NCBI GenBank assembly: GCA_028287465.1
Contig: JAQBPO010000042.1
Location: 62,001 to 126,000, forward strand
Origin: Fibrobacterota bacterium
GTDB lineage: Bacteria > Fibrobacterota > Fibrobacteria > UBA11236
Length of the DNA: 64,000 bases
Direction: 5' to 3'
Shown: in pieces, positions 16,864 to 49,018 of the stretch
How the letters are laid out: every line of letters begins with the position of its first letter
Numbering within the stretch: the first letter of the stretch is position 1
Program-made: the position numbers and the translations under genes
Notes under the pieces: model-generated
Told to the model about the DNA's origin: nothing
Database searches by the model: none
Seen by the model: only the letters and a program-made list of their open reading frames with translations

Positions 16864-17427
16864 TTATTTGAGCTCGGCGGCGGCATATTTCATGGTACCG
16901 GTCATTTCCACCCGGGAAGTGACCCCGCCTACGACCCCTTTTCCGGTTACGCGGATGGTCGAATCGTTCGGGAACCATACCTTGAAGGCGATCGTCTCGT
17001 CCGAGGTCCCGGAAAGGCTCGTCTTATTGTCGACGGCCTGCTGGTAGATCCATCCCTCTTCGTCGGCATTCACCTTGACGTTCGGATAAATGGGCGTGAG
17101 ATCATAGGTATGCAGCTTGCGGTTGTTCGGCTGGCCGTTCTCCAAGGTTTCGGGAAGGATCTCGGTCCCGTTGCCGGCATGCGTGGCGGCCGTATAGGCG
17201 AGGACGTTGGGCTTTTCCTTAGCGAGCGCGCTGAGCGCCCAATTGATTGCGCTTTCCGCGACAAGCTGGGCCTGGGCGTGGTTGGAATCCCTGCCGGTAT
17301 GGCTTACCTCTCCCCGCACGCTGTAGACGGCGATGGAACCCATTACGGTAAGCACCATCAGCAGCATCAGGATGATGACCATGGCGAAACCGGATTGCGA
17401 GCGATGGATTTCTGGCATGGTCCTCAT
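16864..17427 (-). CDS. PilX/GspK-like minor pilin
   Basis: The 187-residue protein has a prepilin leader ending QSG, then FAMVIILMLLMVLTVMGSIA as the pilin helix. The residue at mature position +5 is Ile rather than Glu, as in GspK/PilX-type subunits that sit at the pilus tip and need no Glu5 salt bridge. Behind the helix is a soluble domain of about 140 residues. It follows the PilW-like gene after 1 nt and is the last gene of this cassette. It should be inserted in the inner membrane, processed by prepilin peptidase and act in priming pilus or pseudopilus assembly. Confidence 0.85.
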   Translation of the reverse strand: MRTMPEIHRSQSGFAMVIILMLLMVLTVMGSIAVYSVRGEVSHTGRDSNHAQAQLVAESAINWALSALAKEKPNVLAYTAATHAGNGTEILPETLENGQPNNRKLHTYDLTPIYPNVKVNADEEGWIYQQAVDNKTSLSGTSDETIAFKVWFPNDSTIRVTGKGVVGGVTSRVEMTGTMKYAAAELK

Positions 17428-17428
17428 C

Positions 17429-18034
17429 TCAGTTCAACAGCTCCACGCGGACCTTCGGGTTCCTGTCGCGGACGAACAGGCTCTTGCCCGCCTGGGACTT
17501 GACGTCCAGGCTGAATTCCACCGACTTCACCTTGGCCGGAAGGAGGGTCACGGCGCCGTTAAGGTCGTAATAGGTGAACCCGATGGTGACGACGCCAAGG
17601 CCTTTTATAAGGGGCATGAAGATCGGGGGATTGCTGTTGCAGGCCACCTGCGCCATCAGGGTATCGCCCTTGGAACCGCCTGCCTTGGCGAAATAGGTGA
17701 TCGCCACGGTATCGCTCGCGCCGCAATGACGGCCCTTCAGGTCCACATAGGTGAACTGGAATTTGGCGGATTGCATGATGAATTTATAGCGCTTGTTCGA
17801 CAGGCAGGCGCCGGTATTGGCGATTTCCGTATTCATGCTCTGCACGGCCGATTTGGTCATGGTCTGGAGCCTGGCCTGGGAACCGATATCCCTGTAGCCT
17901 TTCACCTGGCCGATGAACAGGTAGGAACCCGAGGCCACCAGGAGGATCCCGATCCCGGCGCACAGGAGCAGTTCCATCAAGGTGATTCCGCCTTGGCGGG
18001 ACGGGCGGGAGTCCGGAACGGTTGCCGCGCTCAT
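17429..18034 (-). CDS. PilW-like minor pilin
   Basis: The 201-residue product has the leader MSAATVPDSRPSRQGG and mature start ITLMELLLCAGIGILLV, with Glu at +5. The rest is a beta-rich domain with two cysteine pairs, as in PilW/GspJ-like subunits. The ATG at 18034 overlaps the TGA of the PilV-like gene (ATGA), so translation is coupled. A longer in-frame extension exists but lies inside the upstream gene and is not needed. Confidence 0.87.
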   Translation of the reverse strand: MSAATVPDSRPSRQGGITLMELLLCAGIGILLVASGSYLFIGQVKGYRDIGSQARLQTMTKSAVQSMNTEIANTGACLSNKRYKFIMQSAKFQFTYVDLKGRHCGASDTVAITYFAKAGGSKGDTLMAQVACNSNPPIFMPLIKGLGVVTIGFTYYDLNGAVTLLPAKVKSVEFSLDVKSQAGKSLFVRDRNPKVRVELLN

Positions 18035-18441
18035 GGCTCCACCAGGACCATTCCGATATTGTACGAGTGCCCGGTCCAGGTCAGGTTGACCTTGGCCTTG
18101 ATCATGTTGTCGGTTCCCGGTACGCGGGAGAGCGTCGTGACCACGGTGTAATTCGTCTTCTTGCCTTTGTAGGTGGTGGTCGTGGCCTGCGTCGAGCCCA
18201 GGGTTGCGTACTTGGCTTTGAACGTTGCCGAATCCGAGAGGGGGATCTTGGTCCTCTCGAGCAAGGTGACGGCGATATTGGCCGCTTCCGTGAGGTCGCC
18301 GGACTTGCCCAGGGCCTTTCTCTGGGTGCCGGAATAGGCGGTGAGGCCCACGAAGGAAATGCACAGCAGCAGGATGGCCATCAGGATCTCCAGCATGGAG
18401 AATCCCGACTGCCCGCGGCCGCCTCCCTCCCTATCCTTCAC
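18031..18441 (-). CDS. PilV-like minor pilin (GTG start coupled to DUF4114-like gene)
   Basis: From a GTG at 18441 the product has 136 residues: leader VKDREGGGRGQSG and mature FSMLEILMAILLLCISFVGL with Glu at +5, then a small beta domain. The GTG overlaps the TGA stop of the upstream secreted-protein gene (GTGA), and AAGGA lies about 10 nt before it. That coupling ties the pilin cassette to the DUF4114-like protein. The role should be that of GspI/PilV-type subunits in the tip complex. Confidence 0.83.
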   Translation of the reverse strand: MKDREGGGRGQSGFSMLEILMAILLLCISFVGLTAYSGTQRKALGKSGDLTEAANIAVTLLERTKIPLSDSATFKAKYATLGSTQATTTTYKGKKTNYTVVTTLSRVPGTDNMIKAKVNLTWTGHSYNIGMVLVEP

Positions 18442-19142
18442 CGTACCAGATCCTTGCTCAGAAGCTTGCGGTTGAAGATCCCGATTTCGAGGTTCGTTAC
18501 CGTGAATACGACGTCGTCGAAATCCATGTCGGAAAAGGCCTGGGTGCAATCCTCGAAACCGAACTCGAGGTTCCCGTCCTTGTCCCGCCCCACCACGGAC
18601 CAGCGGTTCCCGAAACGCCAGTTGGGGTTGGGCATGATATCGCTTGTGGCGGCGCTGCGATGCCGGTCATAGCCCCGGTTGGGCCCGGAATACTTCGGTA
18701 GCTGATCCTCGGGGGTGATGGACCAGCAGCCGAAGAAGGCGCAACCCGCGACCACCTTGTACATGAAGGTGATCTCGGCGCCGGTGGGAATGGGGAAGGA
18801 AACCTTGGTGCGGAGATCCACGGAAGTTCCTGGAGCGTCATGGTTGGTGAAGAGGAATACCTCCTCCTCCTTGCCCGTCGCGCTCTGGACCACGGCCCAG
18901 AGTTCGCCGGTCCATCCGGCCTCGTTCCCCTTCAAGGTGACGGTGATGGGTTCCAGGGTTCCGAAACCCCCTTTCCATTTGCCGCCGCCGCCGCTGGCCG
19001 CTCCCGTATAGAGGAAGCTCGCCCCCACATACAAGGTATCCGACGACCACATGGCCGAGTTCCGGTAGGGGACATAGATGGCTGATTGCGCGAGCAGACC
19101 GCTCGGCAACGAGAACAGCATCAAGGCCGTTGGAAATCGCAT
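18438..19142 (-). CDS. Secreted DUF4114-like protein, coupled to minor pilins
   Basis: The 234-residue protein has a signal peptide (ending GLLAQ) and one domain. The C-terminal half contains GFEDCTQAFSDMDFDDVVF, the acidic pattern of DUF4114-type, probably calcium-binding, beta-sandwiches; the first half has DTLYVGASFLYTGAASGGGG and a central GNEAGWTGELWAVVQSATG. It is about 75-80% identical by eye to the protein encoded at 19314-19997, a tandem duplicate. The same domain opens the 1010-residue protein at 27470-30502. The start at 19142 has GGGAGGG just upstream. Because its stop overlaps the PilV-like start, it may be a pilus-associated or pilus-exported component. Confidence 0.85.
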   Translation of the reverse strand: MRFPTALMLFSLPSGLLAQSAIYVPYRNSAMWSSDTLYVGASFLYTGAASGGGGKWKGGFGTLEPITVTLKGNEAGWTGELWAVVQSATGKEEEVFLFTNHDAPGTSVDLRTKVSFPIPTGAEITFMYKVVAGCAFFGCWSITPEDQLPKYSGPNRGYDRHRSAATSDIMPNPNWRFGNRWSVVGRDKDGNLEFGFEDCTQAFSDMDFDDVVFTVTNLEIGIFNRKLLSKDLVR

Positions 19143-35636: not shown

Positions 35637-38120
35637 ATGTCAAATCCGATCCGATCCATGCTTCTCGTTCCGCTCTTTATCGCGCTGACCGCGACCTGGT
35701 CCTCGGCCCAGACCAAATCCATCCCGATCACCATCCGCGACTTCAACGCGTCCCACGCGGATTTCGAGGATACGAAGGGAACCTGCAGCGTCGACGGGAA
35801 CGGCGTAAAGGGCATGGTGCAGGACACCCTGGACGCCACCCACAAGCCCGTGACCTCGGCCGCGAGCCCCTGTCCAAAATACGATATCCGGACCTGGTTC
35901 CGCGACGTTCCCGCGGTCAATCACCGCTATTGCCTGGAACTGCCGCTCGAGCCGGTGGCGAACAAGGTCAATACCTTCCAGACCCCGGCGGTGTTCGCCC
36001 AGAATTACTTCCCCATCGATTCCGTCCCCGGGCCCACCGCGCCCTTCACGCCCGTCAAGGCTCCTGATCCCGTGACTCCGGGCAAGGCGGGAGAGACCTT
36101 CGCCGGCGGGCATAATTTCCATTTCTGCATGGAGATGCACGCGACCTTCAAATACCGCGGCGGCGAGGTGTTCGACTTCAAGGGCGACGACGACCTGTGG
36201 GTATTCGTCAACAACCACCAGGCCCTGGACCTGGGAGGCCTGCAGAACAATGGCGCGGGTACGGTCGACCTTGATGCGCAACAGGCGGCCCTGAAAATCC
36301 TGCCGGACAATTATTACACCTTCGACCTTTTCTTCTGCGAGCGGCAGACCACGGGATCTCACCTGCAGGTCACCACCAGCATCGATATCATCCCCCCGCC
36401 GGCGCCGGGCCTGCATATCGCCGACGAGAACCTGAACGTGATCCGTTCCGGGGACACCATACCCGTGGTCCTGGGATCCGCGGGTAAAATCTTCAAGGCC
36501 GTGAAAATCGAGACCCAGGTCCAGACCCTGGATTGCAACAACCTCACCTCCCAGATCAAGACCCCGGCCCAGGGCAACTGGGCCTTCAACAATGGCGCCC
36601 TGCCCGCGGGAACCCAGGTCTCCATCAGTCCCGCCGGGCTGGCTCCCGGCCCTTACAAACTTGTGCTGGAAAGCGCCGGGGTGCGGGATTCGATCTGGAT
36701 CAAGGTGGCGGACCTGCCCAAGGTGGCCACGCCGGTGGCGACGCCGCCGGGCCAGGCCTTCGCGGGGACCCTTTCGGTGGCGCTCACGGACGCGACTCCG
36801 GGAGCCGTCATCCATTATACCACCGACGGGACCTTGCCTACCGCTTCCAGCCCGGTCTACGCCGGCCCCATCGCGATATCGGCGACCACGGTCCTCAAGG
36901 CCATGGCCGAACTGGCCAACTATACCGCGAGCGACATCATGTCCGATACCTATACCAGGACCCCGGGCAAGGCGGCCAGGGGATACTACCAGGATCGCGA
37001 CGGCGACGGCCGGATCGAGACCGCCGTGCTCGTCTTCGACGCGAACTTCACCGTCGCCCCCAAGGAAATCAAATTCACCGACCCCTTCGATCGGACCAGG
37101 ATCCAGACGGTCACGGCCTCCACCCCCGGGGCGCGTAGCGTGACGGTTACCCTGGCGCCCTTCACCCCGGGCACCGGGTTCGCCACCGACGTGCTGGCGA
37201 ACATCTCCGCCGACGCCGAATTCGCCGCTCAAGGCGTCCCCATGGACGACAGCGTGGGACCCGTCGTCAAGGTCGTGAAATCCGTCCCTTCCGCCGTGGC
37301 CGGGACCCCGTCCTCGATCGAGATCGACTTCTCCGAACCGGTCCCCCTGGACGCCGCCTCCCCGGTTTTCCCCCTCGAAATCAAGCGCGGCCAGGGAATC
37401 GTGGACAATGCCGAGGTCAAGGTGTCGCGCATCGAACAGCTTTCCCCTTCGCGTTACCGCATCGTGTTCGCTTTGGATTCCAAGTTCCCCGTCCCGGGCG
37501 ACAGCGTCCGCATCGCGCCCAACCGGCCCGTGAAGGACATCGCCGGAAACCGCAGCGACATGCGCTACTTCATCCCGGTCACGGGCGATCCGCCCCGCGC
37601 CTCCGCGGACCTCAACGTGGGCCTGACCGAAGGAATCACCCACGGGCCGGCGCAGATCAACTACCGGCCCATTCCCAATCCGGTCGTCGTGCATGGCAAG
37701 GAGACATGCGTGAACTGCGGCGACATAGGCATCAAGGATATCCTGCCTGCCCTGGAGACCGGAAAGATCTCGACCGTGGGCCCCACCTGGAAGGTTATGA
37801 CCAAATACCCCTTCAAGTACTCCATGCTCTTCTTCGACAACCTGGGCCAGTTCGTCAACAAGGCCGAAGGCCAAGTGGTGCCTGAGGCCTTCGAACGGCT
37901 GCGGGCCACGGACAAGGTCGGGGATTCGGTCCTGGTGGAGCTGACCTTCCTGCCGGTGGCGAGCGACGGCAGGGCCATCGGCACCGGGGCCTATATCATG
38001 AAGGGCATCCTCCAGATCCAAGATCAGAAGGGCATCAAGGGGAGCCAGGGAGAGACGATCACCCTGGTCCCCACCGAACGGAACATCATTTCCAGGTTTG
38101 GGTACATCCGCAACCAGTAG
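35637..38120 (+). CDS. Fibro-slime domain surface protein
   Basis: The 827-residue protein has a signal peptide (ending WSSAQ). Residues 25-255 contain a fibro-slime domain (TIGR02148) with FCMEMHATFKYRGGEVFDFK and GDDDLWVFVNNHQALDLGG and the closing YTFDLFFCERQTTGS. It is followed by an Ig-like stretch, a chitobiase-C-type domain (about 365-440: GAVIHYTTDGTLPTASSPVY), a segment with YYQDRDGDGRIETAVLVFD, and a C-terminal FlgD-like domain (MLFFDNLGQFVNKAEG) shared with the 1010-residue protein. In Fibrobacter, fibro-slime proteins are linked to adhesion to cellulose; that is known for the family, not shown here. It has its own box-type promoter. Confidence 0.92.
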   Translation: MSNPIRSMLLVPLFIALTATWSSAQTKSIPITIRDFNASHADFEDTKGTCSVDGNGVKGMVQDTLDATHKPVTSAASPCPKYDIRTWFRDVPAVNHRYCLELPLEPVANKVNTFQTPAVFAQNYFPIDSVPGPTAPFTPVKAPDPVTPGKAGETFAGGHNFHFCMEMHATFKYRGGEVFDFKGDDDLWVFVNNHQALDLGGLQNNGAGTVDLDAQQAALKILPDNYYTFDLFFCERQTTGSHLQVTTSIDIIPPPAPGLHIADENLNVIRSGDTIPVVLGSAGKIFKAVKIETQVQTLDCNNLTSQIKTPAQGNWAFNNGALPAGTQVSISPAGLAPGPYKLVLESAGVRDSIWIKVADLPKVATPVATPPGQAFAGTLSVALTDATPGAVIHYTTDGTLPTASSPVYAGPIAISATTVLKAMAELANYTASDIMSDTYTRTPGKAARGYYQDRDGDGRIETAVLVFDANFTVAPKEIKFTDPFDRTRIQTVTASTPGARSVTVTLAPFTPGTGFATDVLANISADAEFAAQGVPMDDSVGPVVKVVKSVPSAVAGTPSSIEIDFSEPVPLDAASPVFPLEIKRGQGIVDNAEVKVSRIEQLSPSRYRIVFALDSKFPVPGDSVRIAPNRPVKDIAGNRSDMRYFIPVTGDPPRASADLNVGLTEGITHGPAQINYRPIPNPVVVHGKETCVNCGDIGIKDILPALETGKISTVGPTWKVMTKYPFKYSMLFFDNLGQFVNKAEGQVVPEAFERLRATDKVGDSVLVELTFLPVASDGRAIGTGAYIMKGILQIQDQKGIKGSQGETITLVPTERNIISRFGYIRNQ

Positions 38121-38458: not shown

Positions 38459-39439
38459 TCAGGGGCCGGCGGGCAGGGGCAGGGCCAGGGCCGAGCCGGG
38501 TCCGGTAACACGCAGGAAACGGGGCCCTGGAGCGGCGGAAGCGGGCAAGGCAAGGTCATGTTCCCCCGCCGCCATGTTCCGATCGAGCAGGCTTTCCGTT
38601 ATCCGACCCCGCGAATCCAGGATCACGATGAGGGACGGTCCCGCCATGGGCAGGTTGAATCGCAAACGCCCGTTGCCGGCTTGGGCGGTGAGCGACGGCA
38701 GGTTCCGGTCCGCCGCGTAGCCTTGCCGCGGCGCCAGGCCGACCACGCCGTTGCTGTCCGCGGAAAAGGAGATGTAGTCCCAATTCAGGTGATAGGAATC
38801 CAGCATGAACTGCATGACCTGCACGCCCGCTTCCAAATCCACCTTGGCCAGGTTCCTGTAGAACCGCCAGGCATGGTAATCCTTGGTCCCGACGAGGGTG
38901 AGTCCCGGCGTCTTGTTCACCCCATTGAAGCTGACATGGCATTTTATCTGGTCGGGCTGGGAGGCGAAGTGGGCGCTGATCCAGTAGGTCCCGGCCTTGG
39001 CCACGTTCACGGTCACGTTGGCGAAGTCCGTGGCATGGGCGGCCCCGATATAGATGGATTTCGGTTGCTCCGCGGAAGGATAGAGCGTGCCGTCGGGGAG
39101 CTTATCCACCTCGCCCGGATTGGAATTGGTGATGTAGAAGGCCGGGTGATCCTTCTCCCCGTCGTCGGCGCGGTTGGCCGCGGTGGATCCGGGGGCTACC
39201 CCCTGTCCCGCCTTGTCATCGGACTTCCACCCGATGTTCATGCCGCCCAGATCGTAATCCTCGAAATCGATGCGGCCGGGAATGGCCCGCGGCGCGCCGC
39301 CGTAGGGCGTCCCTTTGTAACCCGCCGGGATGTCCGCCGCGGCGAGGCCTCCGGTGACGGCCGTGATGAGAATCGAGGCGGTCAGGCCCCGGGAAAGGCC
39401 GCTCCGGGCCCGCAAGGTGACGGAAGGATGATGACGCAT
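38459..39439 (-). CDS. Secreted CBM6-like protein with sorting-like C-terminus
   Basis: The 326-residue protein has a signal peptide (ending GGLAAA). The mature part starts IPAGYKGTPYGGAPRAIPGR followed by IDFEDYDLGG, the usual opening of CBM6-type carbohydrate-binding proteins, and continues with VTVNVAKAGTYWISAHFASQ and VMQFMLDSYHLNWDYISFS. The C-terminal 75 residues resemble a sorting-like domain (IVILDSRGRITESLLD). Start 39439 has GGAG 9 nt upstream. It is related in layout to the protein at 49133. It should bind polysaccharide at the surface; no catalytic domain is present. Confidence 0.86.
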   Translation of the reverse strand: MRHHPSVTLRARSGLSRGLTASILITAVTGGLAAADIPAGYKGTPYGGAPRAIPGRIDFEDYDLGGMNIGWKSDDKAGQGVAPGSTAANRADDGEKDHPAFYITNSNPGEVDKLPDGTLYPSAEQPKSIYIGAAHATDFANVTVNVAKAGTYWISAHFASQPDQIKCHVSFNGVNKTPGLTLVGTKDYHAWRFYRNLAKVDLEAGVQVMQFMLDSYHLNWDYISFSADSNGVVGLAPRQGYAADRNLPSLTAQAGNGRLRFNLPMAGPSLIVILDSRGRITESLLDRNMAAGEHDLALPASAAPGPRFLRVTGPGSALALPLPAGP

Positions 39440-39522
39440 CGTATGCGCTCCAAGGTTGATGGGTCCATGTTTCCCCCTGAACGGAACCGATACCACCCGA
39501 ATCCGTTATCCCAAGGCCCCCG

Positions 39523-40944
39523 TCAGATCCCGACTTCGATCCGGAATACGTAGTAGTAGTCCGAAAGCCGGCTGGTGATGGGGATCTTGATCGGCTTGAT
39601 GTTATAGTCGAAGGTGCGCGTATGATCATTGGCGACCTGCAAATAGAAATTGGCGCCCTTGATGAGCTCTTTCTTGGCCAGCATCGACCAATGGAAACGA
39701 TCGCTCTTGACCTGGCCGGCCACGGAACCCGGACCGTTCACGGGATCGTAATCCTTGTGGTACGGGACCGGATGCTGGAACTCGAATACGGCGTCGATAT
39801 TGTTCGTCCAGAGGGCATTGTAGTATTCCCCTTGCAAGGAAAGCAGATCGATGAGCTTGAAAGTCGGCAGGTTCATCCCGAACATGACCGGGATGCGGTT
39901 CTTGATGTTCGGATAGTAGAAGGGATAATTCTTCACGCCCAGGACCGCGACTTCCGCGAAGAGGCGGAGGTCCGACGGGCTCATGATTTCGTCCAGGCCC
40001 GCGATCCAGGCTTTGGGATCCAGGGAGATTCGACCCATCAACTTGGTGCCCTGGAAGGTGTAGAATCGGGTGGTGTCGCGGGAGATGCTGACCAGGGAGT
40101 CCTTCATGGATCCGGCGGGCTTGGCCGGATCCGTATCCGGGACCTTCACCGTCTGTATGTCGGTGATGATGGAAGTGGGCCAACGCATATAGTCCGGGTT
40201 GGCGGTGGGATCGTGCTGGGCCGGGGCTTCCTTGCTGGGACGGGCCGCGATAAGGTGGTTGAAATCCACGCCCGCGCCCAGCTCCAGGCCCGGCACGCCC
40301 TTATAGGCGGTCACCAGGGTGGGGGAGATGCTGTGCATGGGGGCGAATTGGCTTTCCATGGGGAGCAACAAGGTCGTCTTCCACCGGTTTTCCATCAGGT
40401 TCAGGGTATACGCCGCGCCCTGCACCTGGTAGTTGGCGCTGTTCATGAGGTTGAAGCCGCCCGTCACCAGATAACCGGGATAGGTCCCGGAGCGGAGCAG
40501 GTATTCGCCCAGGTTGGAAGCGTCCGGGTTATACTTGTACCAGAAAATGCCCAACTGAAGATCCGACCAGGGCGCGTCCGGGTTGCCGAAGTGGTAATCG
40601 AACTCCGCGTTCACGGGCCCCACTCCGAACTTGGGCAGGCGGGTATGCGGCGCGCCATCCTGTTCGGGGAGCACGTAGAAGAACACCCCTCCGAATCCCA
40701 TCTTGACTTCGATATGGTCGTCGAGGCGTAGGTTGCGGTTGATGGAGATGTTGGATCTGCGGAGCACCTGGTTGTGGTAATCCTGGCCGGTCTCATCGTT
40801 GAAACCGTGCACGATCTGGCCGTAATCGACGCTGGCCCGGACCGAGCTTTCGCTCGCCTTGACGTCCAACTTGGGTTCCTCGGCGAAGGCGGCGCTCCCG
40901 AACAGGAGTGATAGGAATGCCGCCGGTATGAATTGCTTAGCCAT
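39523..40944 (-). CDS. Outer-membrane barrel, member 1 of a four-paralogue family
   Basis: The 473-residue protein has a signal peptide (ending SAAFA) and a long series of amphipathic beta-strands ending in DYYYVFRIEVGI. Diagnostic segments are PNIKNRIPVMFGMNLPTFKL, DLLSLQGEYYNALWTNNI and ANFYLQVANDHTRTFDY. These recur in the three tandem genes at 50220-54718. I know no named family; a porin-like or substrate-specific channel is likely. Start 40944 has AAAGG 4 nt upstream. Its promoter carries the GGGG box. It lies 83 nt downstream of a CBM6-like gene's start on the same strand, so both may share a transcript. Confidence 0.87.
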   Translation of the reverse strand: MAKQFIPAAFLSLLFGSAAFAEEPKLDVKASESSVRASVDYGQIVHGFNDETGQDYHNQVLRRSNISINRNLRLDDHIEVKMGFGGVFFYVLPEQDGAPHTRLPKFGVGPVNAEFDYHFGNPDAPWSDLQLGIFWYKYNPDASNLGEYLLRSGTYPGYLVTGGFNLMNSANYQVQGAAYTLNLMENRWKTTLLLPMESQFAPMHSISPTLVTAYKGVPGLELGAGVDFNHLIAARPSKEAPAQHDPTANPDYMRWPTSIITDIQTVKVPDTDPAKPAGSMKDSLVSISRDTTRFYTFQGTKLMGRISLDPKAWIAGLDEIMSPSDLRLFAEVAVLGVKNYPFYYPNIKNRIPVMFGMNLPTFKLIDLLSLQGEYYNALWTNNIDAVFEFQHPVPYHKDYDPVNGPGSVAGQVKSDRFHWSMLAKKELIKGANFYLQVANDHTRTFDYNIKPIKIPITSRLSDYYYVFRIEVGI

Positions 40945-41279
40945 GATGCCTTTCCAGTCCAATGCATTTAAAAGCGTTGTGATCGTCGTGCACATATGCC
41001 CCCCAAAGCGTAAAGCCGATCCGGCGGAGACATCGTTCCGGCCCTCGGGGGATCCCGGAGGTAGCACGGAGGATAACCCAATCGGTGTCGATGAATATTA
41101 GCCGGAGAGGTACGTTCCAACCCATGGGTCCGGGGGAATCAGCGGGCCAAATTGGCCCCACCGTATTTGGATCCTTGGGGCAGGTTGCCCGCGAGCAATT
41201 AAACCGTACTCGGCCGTGGCTTCCGGCCGGCCGGCATCGATCATGTGCGCCGGGCATTACCCGGTAATCGGGGCGCCGA
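40945..41279. other. 335-nt gap holding the barrel-gene promoter
   Basis: Apart from the box-type promoter at 41095-41159 the interval contains no gene. The part at 41160-41279 follows the end of the pilus-adhesin gene and shows no clear terminator. Confidence 0.5.
41095..41159 (-). promoter_or_regulatory. Box-type promoter of the barrel gene
   Basis: On the minus strand GGGGCCAATTTGGCCC (41159-41144) is followed after 43 nt by TAATAT (41100-41095). Start near 41088; the leader is about 144 nt. The box is an almost perfect inverted repeat. Confidence 0.55.
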
Positions 41280-43076
41280 TCAGTCCAGCGCGCCGAAATC
41301 GCGCTTCCAATTCTTGGAAAGGCGTCCCTTGATCCTGCCGACCGGCACGTTGGTCTGGATCTTGATCACGGATTGCACGGTCATCCGTTCGCAATAGAAG
41401 AAGTCGAAGGGATAGGTCTGGTAATAGGTGAGGCCGAGATCGTCGAAATAGGTGACCCGGGAAAGCGAGACGTGGATGCCCCCCAGGTCCATCACCAGCT
41501 TATGGTCGATGAACAGCCAGACATCGTCATCCCCCTTGAAATCGAACTCCATCCCGGGGAGGAGCTCGAAGGTGGAGTGCATTTCCATGCAGAAGGAATA
41601 ATTGCGATCCTTTCCCTCCTTTCCGAAACCCTTTCCGTCGATCCAGAAGAAGCCGGAGTCCGAGGCGCCGCCGGTCCGCGTGAAGGCATAGGCGTTGCTC
41701 CCCATGTCCGTCCTATGGATGAAGGGAAGGGAATCGTAGATGCGGACGTTCTTGAAGAGGGTGTCGTTGGCCGTGGCCACGGGAACGCAATCGTTCTCGA
41801 CATCCGGCGTGTTCCGGGGGACGATATGGTTCACCGGGGAGTTCGCGACCCAGGGGTCGAACCAGCGATCCACCCCGCAGCTGTAGAAGGCGCTGTCGGG
41901 AACGGCCGTCCTCACGGGTTTGCCGATGCTGTCCAGGCCGAAGAACCCGGCATCCGTGGCCGTGTACCGCATGGTCCCGGATTTGACCATGTTAAGGTGG
42001 GGCGAGGCGCCGCCCACGCCCCAGGGAGGGCTCTCGAATTCCGGATTGCTCTTGTCGCTATGGTAGTCGTAGAAGATGACCTTGCTCCACATGGTGTCCG
42101 GAGGCGCGGTGACGGAACCCTTCATCGAGATCCTCTGCTGCAGCGGGCTCCGGAAGAGGGTATCGCTGCCCGCCATGGCCTTGAAGCCTTCCGTGAAAAG
42201 GGAGAAGACGTCCGTACCAAGGGATTTCACGCTGTACCGGACCGATGTCCCCGCGATGATCGCCGTATCCTCCCGGGCCTCCTGATAGGTCGAATCGAAA
42301 GGGGAGAGCCGTATCCCCGGGATCGGTTTTTCCGAAACCCATTCGGGCCCGCTCCAACCTACCTGCCCGAAATCGCTTCCCCCGTTCTCCTTGTGGAAGA
42401 ATTCGAAGTAATAACGTTGACCGCTCTTCAGGAAGACGGGCGCGGAAACGGTCTTATAGTCGGGCCCGACGGGCTGGTTGTCCTTGGACGGCCAGACATT
42501 GCCTTCCATATGGGAGTAGTTGTAGGCGAGCGGCAGGACCGGGAGGTTCGCCGGCTTGTCGTCCACGCTGAGGAAGAATTCCGATTCATCGTCCGCGCGG
42601 ACGTAGAAGGTGTATGATCCCGTGGCAGGGGGGTGCAGGTAACCGCGGTACATGAAGCCGTAGTCATCCTTGTAACCCGGATCACCCATGAACCCGTTAT
42701 CGTGGAAATAGGATCCCAGGGAGCTCGACTTCACGGTTTTGGGGGTCCCGAGCGAACCGCTCCTGGCCAGGACCCGGAAGTCCGACGCGCCGAAATGCCC
42801 GCTCGTCTTCCAGAGCATCCCGTTGACGAATCCGCGCGTCGCCGCGCGCGTATAGACCGAATCCCTGCCGTTGAGGACCTCATCCGCCAGCAGGGTCATC
42901 ATGCCGTCGGAAGCGTAGAAGGATTGGACCTTGTGCATGTAGTTCTGGGCCGCCATCCTGTTCTGCTTGCCATCGAACAACATGGCCACGCCCACGGCTG
43001 AGATGCCCAGGATCATGAGCAGGGTGAAGACCAGGATGAATCCGGAATCCCGTCCGGAGGCGCGCGCGATTCCCAT
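41280..43076 (-). CDS. PilX-like minor pilin fused to PA14 and fibro-slime domains
   Basis: The 598-residue protein begins as a prepilin: leader ending RDSG (residue 12), then FILVFTLLMILGISAVGVAM. As in GspK/PilX tip subunits, there is no Glu at mature +5. After a short pilin part comes a PA14 domain (about 95-270: FMYRGYLHPPATGSYTFYVR, FFLSVDDKPANLP, GQRYYFEFFHKENGG), then a fibro-slime domain (about 330-585: FCMEMHSTFELLPGMEFDFK, GDDDVWLFIDHKLVMDLGG, FDFFYCERMTVQS). The predicted role is a pilus-tip adhesin for glycans. It is the last gene of a four-gene minor-pilin operon and starts 2 nt after the PilW-like stop. I do not know this fusion from described pilus systems. Confidence 0.9.
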   Translation of the reverse strand: MGIARASGRDSGFILVFTLLMILGISAVGVAMLFDGKQNRMAAQNYMHKVQSFYASDGMMTLLADEVLNGRDSVYTRAATRGFVNGMLWKTSGHFGASDFRVLARSGSLGTPKTVKSSSLGSYFHDNGFMGDPGYKDDYGFMYRGYLHPPATGSYTFYVRADDESEFFLSVDDKPANLPVLPLAYNYSHMEGNVWPSKDNQPVGPDYKTVSAPVFLKSGQRYYFEFFHKENGGSDFGQVGWSGPEWVSEKPIPGIRLSPFDSTYQEAREDTAIIAGTSVRYSVKSLGTDVFSLFTEGFKAMAGSDTLFRSPLQQRISMKGSVTAPPDTMWSKVIFYDYHSDKSNPEFESPPWGVGGASPHLNMVKSGTMRYTATDAGFFGLDSIGKPVRTAVPDSAFYSCGVDRWFDPWVANSPVNHIVPRNTPDVENDCVPVATANDTLFKNVRIYDSLPFIHRTDMGSNAYAFTRTGGASDSGFFWIDGKGFGKEGKDRNYSFCMEMHSTFELLPGMEFDFKGDDDVWLFIDHKLVMDLGGIHVSLSRVTYFDDLGLTYYQTYPFDFFYCERMTVQSVIKIQTNVPVGRIKGRLSKNWKRDFGALD

Positions 43077-43078
43077 GG

Positions 43079-43906
43079 CTAGGGCCGGTTCCGCATGCGG
43101 ATTTCGGAGTTGAGGGTGACCCGCCGATACCCGTCCCCCTGGTAGCCGGGATCCGGAAGATGGGGCCTGGCCGTCACGGAAACCTTCGCGGAATGCATGC
43201 GGTCCCAGGCGGTGGTGGCCGTTCCCGCCGAGTCGAAGAAGGTCAGCCTTACCGATTCGATGTTCTCCGCCAGGACGATGCCGCCCATGGACAGGTCGGT
43301 CCCGTTCAGATCATAGTCCTCCCTGGTAAATGCGTAAATCTGATCCCCCGAATTGAAGGCCGTGGCGGAGGCCAAGCGGAGGGAGTCCTGGCCCGAAGGG
43401 CCCTTCTTCAAGCCTTTCGCGTAACCGTCCAGGTTGTATCCCGTGGCGATGTCCACCTGGGAAATCGGGCTGGCCTTGTCGCCGCGCTGGATGAGGATGG
43501 CGGCGGCATTCCGGAACAAGGACTCCTCATCGATGGGGACGGTAAAGGATGCGGGGCGATCATCGTAATAGGTCTGGGTACCGCCCCGGGGATTTATCGC
43601 CAGGCTGAAACCCGCAGGGGATCCGGTGGCCGGTTTGATGACCGGCCATCCCGATTCCGGCAGGTACGCCCCCGCCTCCATGATCCTTTCCTCCAGGCGC
43701 TTGACGACGTAATGCGCGTTCTGATCGCGGTCGGCGAGCCGTTCCTGCAGGTTATAGGCCCGATGGGAGTCGCTGAAGAATCGCGTGATCAACAGGACCA
43801 GGATTCCCGAAACCGCCATGCCGATCACGACCTCGACCAGGGTGAAGCCGCATCGGCCCCGGTCCGGCGCGCCGATTCCGGGCGGTTCAGAAACTCTTCG
43901 ACACAT
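43079..43906 (-). CDS. PilW-like minor pilin
   Basis: The 275-residue product has a prepilin leader ending DRGRCG and mature FTLVEVVIGMAVSGILVLLI with Glu at +5. The long beta-rich body (about 235 residues) with NAHYVVKRLEERIMEAGAYL fits PilW/GspJ subunits. The ATG lies 20 nt inside the end of the PilV-like gene. It should pair with the adhesin-carrying PilX-like subunit downstream in the tip complex. Confidence 0.88.
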   Translation of the reverse strand: MCRRVSEPPGIGAPDRGRCGFTLVEVVIGMAVSGILVLLITRFFSDSHRAYNLQERLADRDQNAHYVVKRLEERIMEAGAYLPESGWPVIKPATGSPAGFSLAINPRGGTQTYYDDRPASFTVPIDEESLFRNAAAILIQRGDKASPISQVDIATGYNLDGYAKGLKKGPSGQDSLRLASATAFNSGDQIYAFTREDYDLNGTDLSMGGIVLAENIESVRLTFFDSAGTATTAWDRMHSAKVSVTARPHLPDPGYQGDGYRRVTLNSEIRMRNRP

Positions 43907-44339
43907 AGGTCGTCACTTTCATGGTGTCCATGGTTCCGGTGCCCCAGGTGACCGTAAGATCGATCCTGCGCACTCCCGGAAGCGATGCGCCATCCTTGGG
44001 GGAGGAGGCCGGGCCGACGACGCGCTTGACCGCCAGGTTCGAGTACCGGCTGTCCGCGTAGACGGTGTCCTTGGGCGGCCATGAAGCGGGGTCCTGGGCG
44101 ATGCGCACGCGCATCGATTCGACATGCTTTTCGATGACCTGGGAGGCCCGCTGCATGTTCGAGTTCGAGCGGGACAGCCCAGAAGACCCGCCCTGCATGC
44201 GCATGAACACGGTGATTCCCGTCCCGAGAACGACCAGGGCGACGATCAATTCGAGCATGCTCCAGCCCCGCTGAGCGGAACCGCCGGCGGGCCGCGCCGA
44301 TCCGGATCGAGGACCCGGATCCCGGGACGTGGGGATCAT
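43887..44339 (-). CDS. PilV/GspI-like minor pilin
   Basis: The 150-residue product has leader residues ending GGSAQRG and mature WSMLELIVALVVLGTGITVF with Glu at +5. The small soluble domain ends TVTWGTGTMDTMKVTTYVSK. Its ATG overlaps the TGA of the preceding FimT-like gene (ATGA). Size and layout fit GspI/PilV subunits. Confidence 0.87.
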   Translation of the reverse strand: MIPTSRDPGPRSGSARPAGGSAQRGWSMLELIVALVVLGTGITVFMRMQGGSSGLSRSNSNMQRASQVIEKHVESMRVRIAQDPASWPPKDTVYADSRYSNLAVKRVVGPASSPKDGASLPGVRRIDLTVTWGTGTMDTMKVTTYVSKSF

Positions 44340-44824
44340 CTCGTGCTCCGGATGCGGCCCGTGCTGGCCAGAACGTCGACGGTGTCGCTGAAGTCGGCGG
44401 AAACGATCACGACCTTGGCGCTGAGGAAGGCGGATCCGTCCCCGCGATAGATGACGGATTGGGGGTAGGGAGCCGGGATGAACAGGAGGATTCCCTTCGG
44501 GAGCGCGAAGGGCGCCAGGTAGGGCTTGTCCTTCCCGACGTCATAGGCGTAGGAACCGGGGGCGAAAGTGTCCTGGAACAGGAATGCCTTCGGAGGCGCG
44601 GAATCCGTGTCGAAATAGACGCCGCAATGCAGGGAAGGATTCGCCATGGCCCGGCCGCGGGCCGTCTGCATGAGCTTGCGCAGACCCACGACGGCGCTTT
44701 TCTGTTCCATCGTCTTCAAGTATTTCGAAATGGGCGACCTGGCCGCAAGGGTCAGGATGAGGATGATGCCGACCACGGTCATGACCTCCAGCAGGGTGAT
44801 TCCGGTTTGTGAACGCGCTTTCAT
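44336..44824 (-). CDS. FimT/GspH-like minor pilin, first gene of the operon
   Basis: The 162-residue product starts MKARSQTG followed by mature ITLLEVMTVVGIILILTLAA with Glu at +5. The body, with VVGLRKLMQTARGRAMANPS and a C-terminal DTVDVLASTGRIRSTR, is typical of GspH/FimT. Start 44824 lies downstream of the predicted promoter, which excludes a 23-residue longer form. It opens the operon FimT-PilV-PilW-PilX/adhesin. The main pilin, ATPase and secretin genes are not in the window. Confidence 0.88.
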   Translation of the reverse strand: MKARSQTGITLLEVMTVVGIILILTLAARSPISKYLKTMEQKSAVVGLRKLMQTARGRAMANPSLHCGVYFDTDSAPPKAFLFQDTFAPGSYAYDVGKDKPYLAPFALPKGILLFIPAPYPQSVIYRGDGSAFLSAKVVIVSADFSDTVDVLASTGRIRSTR

Positions 44825-44894
44825 TTGCCCCCGGGGCTCCCGAATCCCATCCGCAATCGGATCCCCCATCCCCATTATAGGGCTGGCAAGCATG

Positions 44895-46603: not shown

Positions 46604-46714
46604 AGGGTCGTGATTTGGGCCGGATCCCGGGGGGCGAATCCGGTCCGTAACGGTTGGCCCGTAACGATTGGCTCGAAACGAACGGCCCGAAAAGGGCCTG
46701 GAAGAGGTATCCGG

Positions 46715-49018
46715 ATGTCCATGTTCAAGAACGTAATCGGGGTCTTCGCGCTGGCTGGGATGTTCGCCTCCCAGGCCTTTTCCCTCGCGGGAACGCTCAC
46801 CGCGGCCAACAACAACTGGACCGGTACCGTAGAGGTTACGGGAGCCATCACCGTTCCCCCCGGCCTCACCTTGACCATCGCCCCGGGCACCCGCGTGCGC
46901 GCCACGGGCACCAATCTCGCCATCACGGCGAACGGCCCGGTCAAGGCGTCCGGCACCCTGGCGAATTACATCGACTTCTACGGCGTGGGCCTGGTGCTCA
47001 ACGGCGCCGGTTCCCAGCACGTGCTGGAATACTGCGTCCTGATGAACAACCTGACCAGCGCGGTATGGATCGCCGGAGCGGACGCGAAGCTCAACCATGT
47101 GCAGATCCAGGACTTCGGCACCAACGGGGTGGCGATCACCGGTGCCGGTTCCAAGGTCGCCATGCAATACTGCACCATCGGCGCCAAGTCCCGGCTCTTC
47201 GGCGGCGCGGAAGCCGTCTCGGTAGCCATCAGCGGCGGCGCGGACGCGGCCGACGTGGACATCTCCAATTCCATCCTCGGCTTCGAGAACAAGCCCACCC
47301 AGGTGGGCCTTTCGATCAAGACCGCCGGCGGCGCCGCGGCGGCCTCCGCTTCGGTCAAGGTCCGCTATTCCATCATCACCGGGACCCGTGTCGGCACGGG
47401 CGCGGGAGAGGTGGGAATCCTGACCGGCACGGACCCGGACGTCAAGGATATCCCCAACCTGGACTACCATCTCTGGCCCTATTCCGCGGCCATCAACGCG
47501 GGCGATCCCGCTTCCGATTTCTCCGCCGAACCCGCGCCCAACGGCGGACGCGTGGACATGGGTTATTACGGCGGCACCGCCGAAGCCTCGCCTTTCCAGT
47601 TCCGCATCGTTTCGCCCAACGGCGGCGACTCGCTGACCCCGGCCACGACGGCCACCATCAAATGGCAGGGCGGCAAGCTGCTCGGCGTCAAGAAGCTGGA
47701 CTACTCCATCAACAACGGGACCAGCTGGGTCGCCATCACCTCTTCCGCGGACGCGGGCGGCACCGGCAGCTTTGCCTGGACCGTACCCGCCGTGAAATCG
47801 CCGAACTGCCTGGTCCGGGTTTCCCTTCCCACCGGCGAAGGCGTCGACCAATCCGACCGCGTCTTCACCATCGGCGATACCACCAGCGGCAACAGCAACG
47901 GCGTCCTCAAGGATCCCACCCTCTTCCGCTGCATTCCTTTCACCGCCTATCATGACGGCCAGAATCCCGGCGGCGGCGAGCCCACCCTGGCGCAGGTCAA
48001 GGCGGATCTGGAGCTCATCAAGCCCCTGACCCGGGAAATCCGCACCTACGGGTCCGGCATGACCACCCACGGCAGCAAGCTCCCCGCGCTGTGCGATCAG
48101 ATGGGCATGAAGATCCATATGGGCATCTGGATCGACGATACCTATACCGAAGCCGCCAACCAGCAGTCCATCCTGGAGGGGATCGACCTGGTCAACGAGG
48201 GCCATGCCTCGATCAAGACCGTCATCGTCGGCAACGAGTTCCTGCTGCGCGTGCGCGCGGCCCATAAGGACGTCGGCGCGGCCGAGGCCAAGCTGGTCCG
48301 CTATATCAAGCAGGTGAAGGCGGCGGTTCCCCCGGGCATCGTCGTCGGAACGGGCGAATCCTATCCGGACTGGCTCGCGGCCAGCGACGAATTGATCAAG
48401 GCCGTGGACCGCGTCATCTGGCACGTGCATCCCTGGTGGGAGCAGAAGTCCGCCGACAATGCGGGCAACCATGCCTACAATGTCTATCTCCAGATGAAGG
48501 CCCGTATCGCCAAGGTCCCCGGCGGCAAGCCGATGGTGCTGGGCGAGACCGGCTGGCCCACCGAGGCCACCACCGGCGCGGCCGTGGGCAGCCCGGAGAA
48601 CCAGGCGCGTTACCTCAAGGATCTGCATGCCTGGGCCCGCAAGGAAGGCCTCGACTACTGGTTCTTCACCAACGTGGACGAGAAGTGGAAAGGCAACGAA
48701 GGGGCCGTCGGCGCCCATTGGGGCATGTACAATTCCGATCGCACCCCCAAATACATCATCGGGCACCTGAACGAACTGATCCCCGCCGCCACCCGTTGGG
48801 AAAACGATCCCGTGGCCACGGCAATCCGCCTGCGCGCCCAGGACCGCTTCGCCCTGCATGGGACCGGGACCTCGGCCGCCAACCTGTCCGTTTACAATTT
48901 GCAAGGCCGCCTGATCGGGACCCTCTCGGGCGCCGCGCCGGCCGGTGAAAACCGCTTGCTGGAAAAGACCCGGAAGGCTGCCCAAGGGATCATCCTGATC
49001 GGCCAACGGGCACGTTGA
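46715..49018 (+). CDS. Secreted GH17 beta-1,3-glucanase-like enzyme with beta-helix domain
   Basis: The 767-residue protein has a signal peptide, an N-terminal right-handed beta-helix (about 25-290: VPPGLTLTIAPGTRVRATG, YCVLMNNLTSAVWIAG, YCTIGAKSRLFGG), an Ig-like domain (about 295-390: SPNGGDSLTPATTATIKW) and a GH17 catalytic barrel (about 405-690). Glu508 in VIVGNEFLLR is the expected acid/base and Glu611 in VLGETGWPTE the nucleophile. The last 60 residues resemble a sorting-like domain (LSVYNLQGRLIGTLSG). It should cut beta-1,3- or mixed-linkage glucan outside the cell. GAGG lies 7 nt before the ATG. It is followed by a CBM6-like gene on the same strand. Confidence 0.92.
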   Translation: MSMFKNVIGVFALAGMFASQAFSLAGTLTAANNNWTGTVEVTGAITVPPGLTLTIAPGTRVRATGTNLAITANGPVKASGTLANYIDFYGVGLVLNGAGSQHVLEYCVLMNNLTSAVWIAGADAKLNHVQIQDFGTNGVAITGAGSKVAMQYCTIGAKSRLFGGAEAVSVAISGGADAADVDISNSILGFENKPTQVGLSIKTAGGAAAASASVKVRYSIITGTRVGTGAGEVGILTGTDPDVKDIPNLDYHLWPYSAAINAGDPASDFSAEPAPNGGRVDMGYYGGTAEASPFQFRIVSPNGGDSLTPATTATIKWQGGKLLGVKKLDYSINNGTSWVAITSSADAGGTGSFAWTVPAVKSPNCLVRVSLPTGEGVDQSDRVFTIGDTTSGNSNGVLKDPTLFRCIPFTAYHDGQNPGGGEPTLAQVKADLELIKPLTREIRTYGSGMTTHGSKLPALCDQMGMKIHMGIWIDDTYTEAANQQSILEGIDLVNEGHASIKTVIVGNEFLLRVRAAHKDVGAAEAKLVRYIKQVKAAVPPGIVVGTGESYPDWLAASDELIKAVDRVIWHVHPWWEQKSADNAGNHAYNVYLQMKARIAKVPGGKPMVLGETGWPTEATTGAAVGSPENQARYLKDLHAWARKEGLDYWFFTNVDEKWKGNEGAVGAHWGMYNSDRTPKYIIGHLNELIPAATRWENDPVATAIRLRAQDRFALHGTGTSAANLSVYNLQGRLIGTLSGAAPAGENRLLEKTRKAAQGIILIGQRAR

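What the first reader, a model, noticed from the sequence alone, without database searches (positions are those of the whole stretch)
41280..44824. Minor-pilin operon ending in a PilX-PA14-fibro-slime fusion: a candidate pilus-tip glycan adhesin
The last of four coupled minor-pilin genes has a prepilin leader without Glu5, as in tip subunits, and then two adhesion-type domains, PA14 and fibro-slime. Fibro-slime domains are nearly exclusive to Fibrobacter-like bacteria and slime moulds and are linked to surface attachment. A tip subunit that carries them would give pili a direct grip on plant polysaccharide, a mechanism I do not know as described.
Basis: partly seen in the sequence, partly recalled or inferred. 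Interest (0 to 1): 0.8.

Follow-up and report, generated by a model that had tools for sequence, protein, structure and literature searches.

The report
Pilus-tip pilin carrying sugar-binding-type domains
A small subunit predicted to cap a retractable bacterial hair carries two sugar-binding-type domains, and relatives across the phylum Fibrobacterota keep the same protein frame but swap one domain for others, which would give these bacteria an exchangeable molecular grip on polymers.

Summary
A tight four-gene minus-strand operon (FimU-, PilV-, PilW- and PilX/GspK-type minor pilins) ends in a 598-aa prepilin without Glu5. It carries a PA14 domain (E 1.4e-17) and a fibro-slime domain (3.2e-31), the latter itself a PA14 relative. 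It is no artefact: 11 loci in 5 of 6 genomes of the genus keep it (dN/dS 0.13-0.20 between orthologues).

A phylum search found more. Families outside the class keep the same chassis: Glu5-less helix, conserved beta-rich segment, C-terminal fibro-slime module and a W-[+]-R-D-Y-G tail seen only in pilin fusions. The domain between helix and beta segment differs: PA14 here; DUF1349, GH115_C or paired discoidin domains elsewhere. One relative has a propeller-like C-terminus. In Fibrobacter-like genomes a 2,100-2,800-aa PilX-type protein fills the slot. The genome encodes PilB, PilT, PilC, a PilQ-like secretin and a prepilin peptidase; no PilY1 was found, but without a positive control.

Best reading: the cap of a T4aP priming complex acting as a modular adhesin. 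Sugar binding, tip position and ligand are inferred. PA14-bearing pilins are already known, so this is a new variant of a known kind; the swappable insert and fibro-slime fusion were not found described.

The parts
44336..44824 (-). FimU/GspH-type minor pilin, leader MKARSQTG|ITLLE (Glu5 present); ORF could start upstream at 44893
43887..44339 (-). PilV-type minor pilin, Glu5 present (TIGR02523 9e-8, below cut-off)
43079..43906 (-). PilW-type minor pilin, Glu5 present (N_methyl PF07963 2e-6, above cut-off)
41280..43076 (-). PilX/GspK-type modular pilin, 598 aa, no Glu5, PA14 plus fibro-slime
42807..43076 (-). residues 1-90: leader (1-12) and N-terminal pilin helix, conserved across the phylum
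42342..42728 (-). residues 117-245: PA14 domain, inserted after the helix; Asp162-Asp163 motif
42087..42281 (-). residues 266-330: conserved beta-rich segment, probable pilin beta-sheet (not shown in structure)
41346..41606 (-). residues 491-577: fibro-slime core TIGR02148 with GDDD motif; the whole C-terminal module is about residues 331-578
41283..41309 (-). residues 590-598 WKRDFGALD: C-terminal tail found in pilin fusions only

Best explanation
The operon encodes the priming/tip complex of a type IVa pilus. FimU-, PilV- and PilW-type subunits carry the cap subunit, which lacks Glu5 and so is expected to sit on top. The cap is a modular pilin: a ligand-binding domain (here PA14) is inserted between the pilin helix and a beta segment, and a second PA14-related module (fibro-slime) follows at the C-terminus. 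Prepilin peptidase cleaves at G12|F13, the helix enters the filament tip, and both modules are displayed there, where they bind glycan, probably through Ca2+ held by their Asp-Asp motifs. PilB and PilT then extend and retract the pilus against the bound surface. The insert is the specificity part and is exchanged between lineages; the fibro-slime module and tail stay nearly constant. Shown: gene order, leader, missing Glu5, domains, conservation, insert exchange, genes for PilB, PilT, PilC, PilQ-like secretin and prepilin peptidase. Inferred: processing, tip position, use by the T4aP rather than a T2SS, glycan binding, ligand identity.
For: Four-gene order with Glu5 in the first three and not in the last in the genus. 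Glu5 missing in 18 of 18 chassis proteins aligned. PA14 and fibro-slime over curated cut-offs; Foldseek matches to PA14 lectins. Asp-Asp motif conserved in PA14 (DD in 10 of 11, DN in one) and GDDD in the fibro-slime core. Same chassis with other inserts in three other families. T4aP genes PilB, PilT, PilC, PilQ-like and prepilin peptidase. The reduced genomes of sister genus g2 lack both clear T2SSE-type ATPases and the chassis. Tip complex capped by a Glu5-less subunit: PMC10191384.
Against: No binding, localisation or expression data. Low-confidence models (pLDDT 48.8 and 54.2), so the PA14-in-pilin insertion rests on alignment. The operon is not next to pilus machinery genes, and a GspE-like ATPase is also encoded. 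One genome of the genus (G003) lacks the fusion. G093 carries chassis genes outside the usual operon.
Confidence: 0.6

Rival explanations
1. The four genes are the pseudopilus tip (GspH-I-J-K) of a type II secretion system, and the inserted domains recognise secreted enzymes or hold them near the secretin rather than gripping the environment.
For: GspK is also a Glu5-less tip subunit with an inserted domain (PMC8179133). A GspE-like ATPase is encoded. The small PilX of the same window scores best with GspK NF037980 (1.4e-7). Minor pilins of T2SS and T4aP are exchangeable (PMC10191384).
Against: The GspE-like ATPase has its own prepilin genes close by. The fusion does not hit GspK at E<=1. Up to three such operons per genome and insert exchange fit adhesion better than secretion.
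Confidence: 0.17
2. The tip pilin binds the exopolysaccharide or surface glycans of the species itself or of neighbouring cells, serving aggregation or twitching, and not plant polymer.
For: PA14 lectins bind many sugars (PMC8092209). PA14 is the least conserved segment in the window's orthologue group, as for a variable ligand.
Against: The window-type operon keeps company with a GH17 glucanase, CBM6-like, porin-like and free fibro-slime genes in three species. Neighbourhood is weak evidence, so this remains open.
Confidence: 0.15
3. The C-terminal module is mainly a structural cap that replaces PilY1 in priming assembly, and sugar binding is secondary or absent.
For: The fibro-slime module and the W-[+]-R-D-Y-G tail are far more constant than the insert, as expected of an assembly part. 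No PilY1 hit in 168 genomes (no positive control).
Against: Exchange of the insert for other domains, some from known sugar-binding families, and the conserved Asp-Asp pair argue for ligand binding.
Confidence: 0.08

Closest known systems
Modular type IV pilins, e.g. Streptococcus sanguinis PilB (vWA) and PilC (lectin) (PMC8179133, PMC9934059)
   Same: Adhesive domain of a non-pilus family grafted on a minor pilin with a class III leader, probably tip exposed; PA14 is one of the 15 commonest such grafts.
   Different: Here the PA14 domain lies between helix and beta segment rather than after the pilin module, a second domain follows, the carrier is the Glu5-less cap of a four-gene set, and the insert is exchanged between lineages on one chassis.
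T4aP priming complex PilHIJK (FimU-PilV-PilW-PilX) with PilC/PilY1 (PMC10191384)
   Same: Four-gene order, last subunit without Glu5.
   Different: The cap pilin carries the adhesive-type domains itself; no PilY1 was found (without positive control).
GspK of T2SS (PMC8179133)
   Same: Glu5-less tip subunit with an extra domain inserted in the pilin part.
   Different: Inserted alpha-domain there, beta-sandwich-type sugar-binding families here; no fibro-slime module; no NCBIfam GspK match.
Fibro-slime proteins of Fibrobacter succinogenes (PMC3079729, PMC4668043)
   Same: Same TIGR02148 module; antibodies to such proteins reduce adhesion to cellulose (reported in PMC4668043).
   Different: Those are free proteins and no pilin fusion is mentioned in the passages read; the pilin-fused copies share a C-terminal tail not seen in free ones.
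MpPA14 and yeast Flo/Epa PA14 lectins (PMC8092209)
   Same: Domain family, Asp-Asp motif, Foldseek match.
   Different: Different carrier; conservation of the sugar-contacting loop residues was not established.

Membership tests
T4aP priming/tip complex (PilHIJK / FimU-PilV-PilW-PilX) | Four adjacent minor pilins with class III leaders | tested here: met
   recurs in relatives
T4aP priming/tip complex (PilHIJK / FimU-PilV-PilW-PilX) | Cap subunit lacks Glu5 | tested here: met
   Phe5 here; 18 of 18 chassis proteins lack Glu5
T4aP priming/tip complex (PilHIJK / FimU-PilV-PilW-PilX) | PilX_N (PF14341) match | tested here: inconclusive
   None for the window protein; relatives from 7.3e-6 (over cut-off) to 0.06
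T4aP priming/tip complex (PilHIJK / FimU-PilV-PilW-PilX) | T4aP machine in the genome | tested here: met
   PilB and PilT over cut-off, PilC-type, PilQ-like just under cut-off; prepilin peptidase
T4aP priming/tip complex (PilHIJK / FimU-PilV-PilW-PilX) | Location at the pilus tip | not testable with these tools
   needs imaging
Modular pilin | Pilin N-terminus plus a domain not specific to pili | tested here: met
Modular pilin | Complete pilin fold in the carrier | tested here: inconclusive
   beta strands predicted at low confidence
PA14 lectin | PF07691 above cut-off and Asp-Asp motif | tested here: met
   DD in 10 of 11 homologues, DN in one
PA14 lectin | Ca2+-dependent sugar binding | not testable with these tools
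   needs binding assay
Fibro-slime domain (TIGR02148) | Model match over cut-off | tested here: met
   107.7 bits against 45
PilC/PilY1 | PF05567 propeller | tested here: not met
   No PF05567 match in the window protein; none in the genome either, but that search had no positive control
T2SS GspK | NF037980 match | tested here: not met
   No hit at E<=1 for the window protein; one relative at 0.063

The most novel reading that the evidence does not exclude
Fibrobacterota use one conserved pilus-tip chassis as an exchange platform. The ligand-binding domain sits inside the tip pilin between helix and beta segment and is swapped between lineages (PA14, DUF1349, GH115_C, paired discoidin), the C-terminal module can also be swapped (fibro-slime or propeller-like), and this cap takes the place of PilY1, uniting in one molecule fibro-slime proteins and type IV pili, two factors long linked to cellulose adhesion in Fibrobacter.
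Probability: 0.45. Interest if true: 0.75.

Novelty: new variant of a known kind. Interest (0 to 1): 0.62.

Why it matters
How Fibrobacter-like bacteria hold on to insoluble plant polymers is an old open question; fibro-slime proteins and type IV pilins are both implicated but are treated as separate factors in the papers read. A tip pilin that contains the fibro-slime module joins the two and makes the question directly testable. If the insert exchange is functional, it is a natural system for changing what a retractable pilus grips.

Tried and rejected
Gene-model artefact or chance fusion: rejected; the protein is conserved at 39-78% identity in ten other loci under purifying selection. Fibro-slime as an unrelated domain: rejected; the same residues score with PF07691 in the window protein, its neighbour and several relatives. 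Fusion restricted to the genus: true only of the PA14 version; the chassis is wider. PilX-PA14 outside the phylum: the pattern-based scan of GTDB genomes gave full-length matches only in this genus; one Saccharibacteria protein (L130) joins PA14 to an ordinary Glu5 pilin, a different architecture. PilY1 absence: no hits in three searches but no positive control could be found, so absence is not claimed. Structure prediction: two jobs, both low confidence because few sequences were admissible; only the PA14 region is leaned on, and the fibro-slime fold only as agreeing with sequence. A tree of the 86-column fibro-slime core clusters the pilin-fused copies (3 changes against 16.7 in shuffles), but one origin or several is not settled. 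G099 in family f12 matches the helix weakly but its protein has no recognised domain.

Full report
WHAT IS THERE. The minus strand from 44824 to 41280 holds four genes that overlap or abut. The first three are prepilins with Glu5. The fourth (43076-41280, 598 aa) begins MGIARASGRDSG|FILVFTLLMILGISAVG, a class III leader with Phe at position 5. It contains PA14 (PF07691, residues 117-245, 1.4e-17) and Fibro_Slime (TIGR02148, residues 491-577, 3.2e-31). The fibro-slime residues also score over cut-off with PA14 (place C73:103328-103549), so the protein carries two related domains. Foldseek of the model matched PA14 lectins (Epa1, Flo1, MpPA14) and PA14 pairs of anti-sigma factors (6qdi, 6qe7). 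The model is weak overall (pLDDT 48.8), better in much of the PA14 region (blocks of 70-86).

IT IS A REAL, CONSERVED GENE. A search of 61 relatives found the full-length protein in five of the six genomes of the window's genus, eleven loci in all (one cut by a contig end) including a tandem duplication, and nowhere else in the class sampled, where only the fibro-slime part matched. Named relatives are MAGs titled Fibrobacteres or Fibrobacteria bacterium (RYN_348, nzgw217, Chersky_265). The FimU-PilV-PilW-fusion order recurs, with up to three separate operons per genome. Between orthologues dN/dS is 0.13-0.20 over the whole protein and at most about 0.25 in any segment; in the window's orthologue group PA14 is the least conserved segment.

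THE CHASSIS IS WIDER THAN THE GENUS. A profile of the pilin-plus-PA14 part, run over 168 genomes of the phylum, found proteins in families f7, f9 and f11 that match only at the pilin end. Fetched with their flanks, they are the last genes of the same kind of operon and have a C-terminal fibro-slime module. Pfam shows what stands in PA14's place: DUF1349 in f7 (G079 above cut-off, the others below it), GH115_C in f11 (three proteins above cut-off), two F5/8 type C domains in f9 (two proteins above cut-off). The segment after the insert (window residues 266-330) is conserved in all of them, so the insert sits between the helix and a segment that looks like the pilin beta-sheet; this is read from alignment and is not shown in structure. 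Insert length is about 180-210 residues, or about 300 for the double discoidin. The chassis-plus-fibro-slime proteins with a complete end finish in W-x-R-[D/E]-[Y/F]-G plus two or so residues, which no free fibro-slime protein with a visible end had. A chassis tree without the insert puts the PA14 versions in one clade (100/99) and needs five insert changes against a minimum of four; the long row G093 is uncertain in it.

VARIATION AT THE OTHER END. In G093 one chassis protein has a fibro-slime C-terminus and another has BNR/Sortilin-type repeats instead; neither lies in the usual operon. In family f3 (many 3-4 Mb genomes, Fibrobacter-like by inference) the operon ends in PilX_N proteins of 2,133-2,766 aa with no fibro-slime match.

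MACHINE. The window's genome encodes PilB (696.7 bits, cut-off 675.65) next to a PilT-family gene (481, cut-off 319.1) and a PilC-type gene, further PilT-family genes and a PilQ-like secretin just under cut-off, and a prepilin peptidase. A GspE-like ATPase gene elsewhere has its own prepilin genes nearby. A second, small PilV-PilW-PilX set lies in this window at about 18549-16864. So a T4aP with retraction is encoded, and the T2SS-like machine seems to have its own pseudopilins; which machine uses the fusion is inferred. PMC4704652 reports that all Fibrobacteres genomes then known have T4P genes and all but one have TIGR02148, discussed there as separate factors; it also notes one fibro-slime protein with a flagellar FlgD domain.

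MECHANISM. PMC10191384 states that conserved minor pilins form a tip complex capped by a subunit without Glu5 and that assembly starts with it. On that model the fusion is the cap, and its modules are the first part of the pilus to meet a surface. PMC8092209 describes how PA14 lectins bind sugar through Ca2+ on an Asp-Asp motif; the motif is present in PA14 here (DD in 10 of 11, DN in one) and in the fibro-slime core (GDDD in the complete copies of the genus). Sugar binding follows by family, not by test. The GH17 gene (3e-10), a CBM6-like gene, a porin-like gene and a free fibro-slime gene stay beside the window-type operon in three species, which hints at polysaccharide use but does not name the ligand.

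NOVELTY. PA14 on pilins is recorded (PMC8179133) and a glycan-binding minor-pilin complex is characterised in S. sanguinis (PMC9934059). The library searches found no description of a pilin fused to a fibro-slime domain, or of domain exchange inside a cap pilin; subscription papers and preprints are mostly not held, so this is absence from the searched library only. I rate it a new variant of a known kind.

Noticed in passing
L163:1751-9364, L164:4722-13022, L165:4104-11249, L166:3989-11437, L167:3944-10345: In Fibrobacter-like genomes (family f3) the minor-pilin operon ends in a Glu5-less PilX_N-type protein of 2,133-2,766 aa; one has collagen-like GPMGP repeats and Pfam finds little else. 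A giant pilus-tip candidate worth its own study.
   Followed up: partly
L197:1341-3293 (G093:C82): Same pilin helix and DUF1349-like insert, but the C-terminus is a BNR/Sortilin-type repeat region instead of fibro-slime, so the C-terminal module is exchangeable too.
   Followed up: partly
window 16864-18549 (-): A second, small minor-pilin set (PilV-, PilW- and a 187-aa PilX/GspK-type protein without Glu5) in the same window.
   Followed up: partly
L154, L156, L157, L158 (family f11): The PilW-type pilins of these operons also lack Glu5 (Gly5: LTLIG, VTLLG, ITLLG, FTLVG), so two of the four subunits lack it.
   Followed up: no
window 35637-38120, 38459-39496, 39523-41067, 46610-49018: Free fibro-slime protein, CBM6-like protein, porin-like protein and GH17 glucanase stay beside the operon in three species of the genus.
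   Followed up: partly
L130:5509-6321 (Candidatus Saccharibacteria NP70): An ordinary Glu5 pilin joined to PA14, an independent PA14 modular pilin.
   Followed up: no
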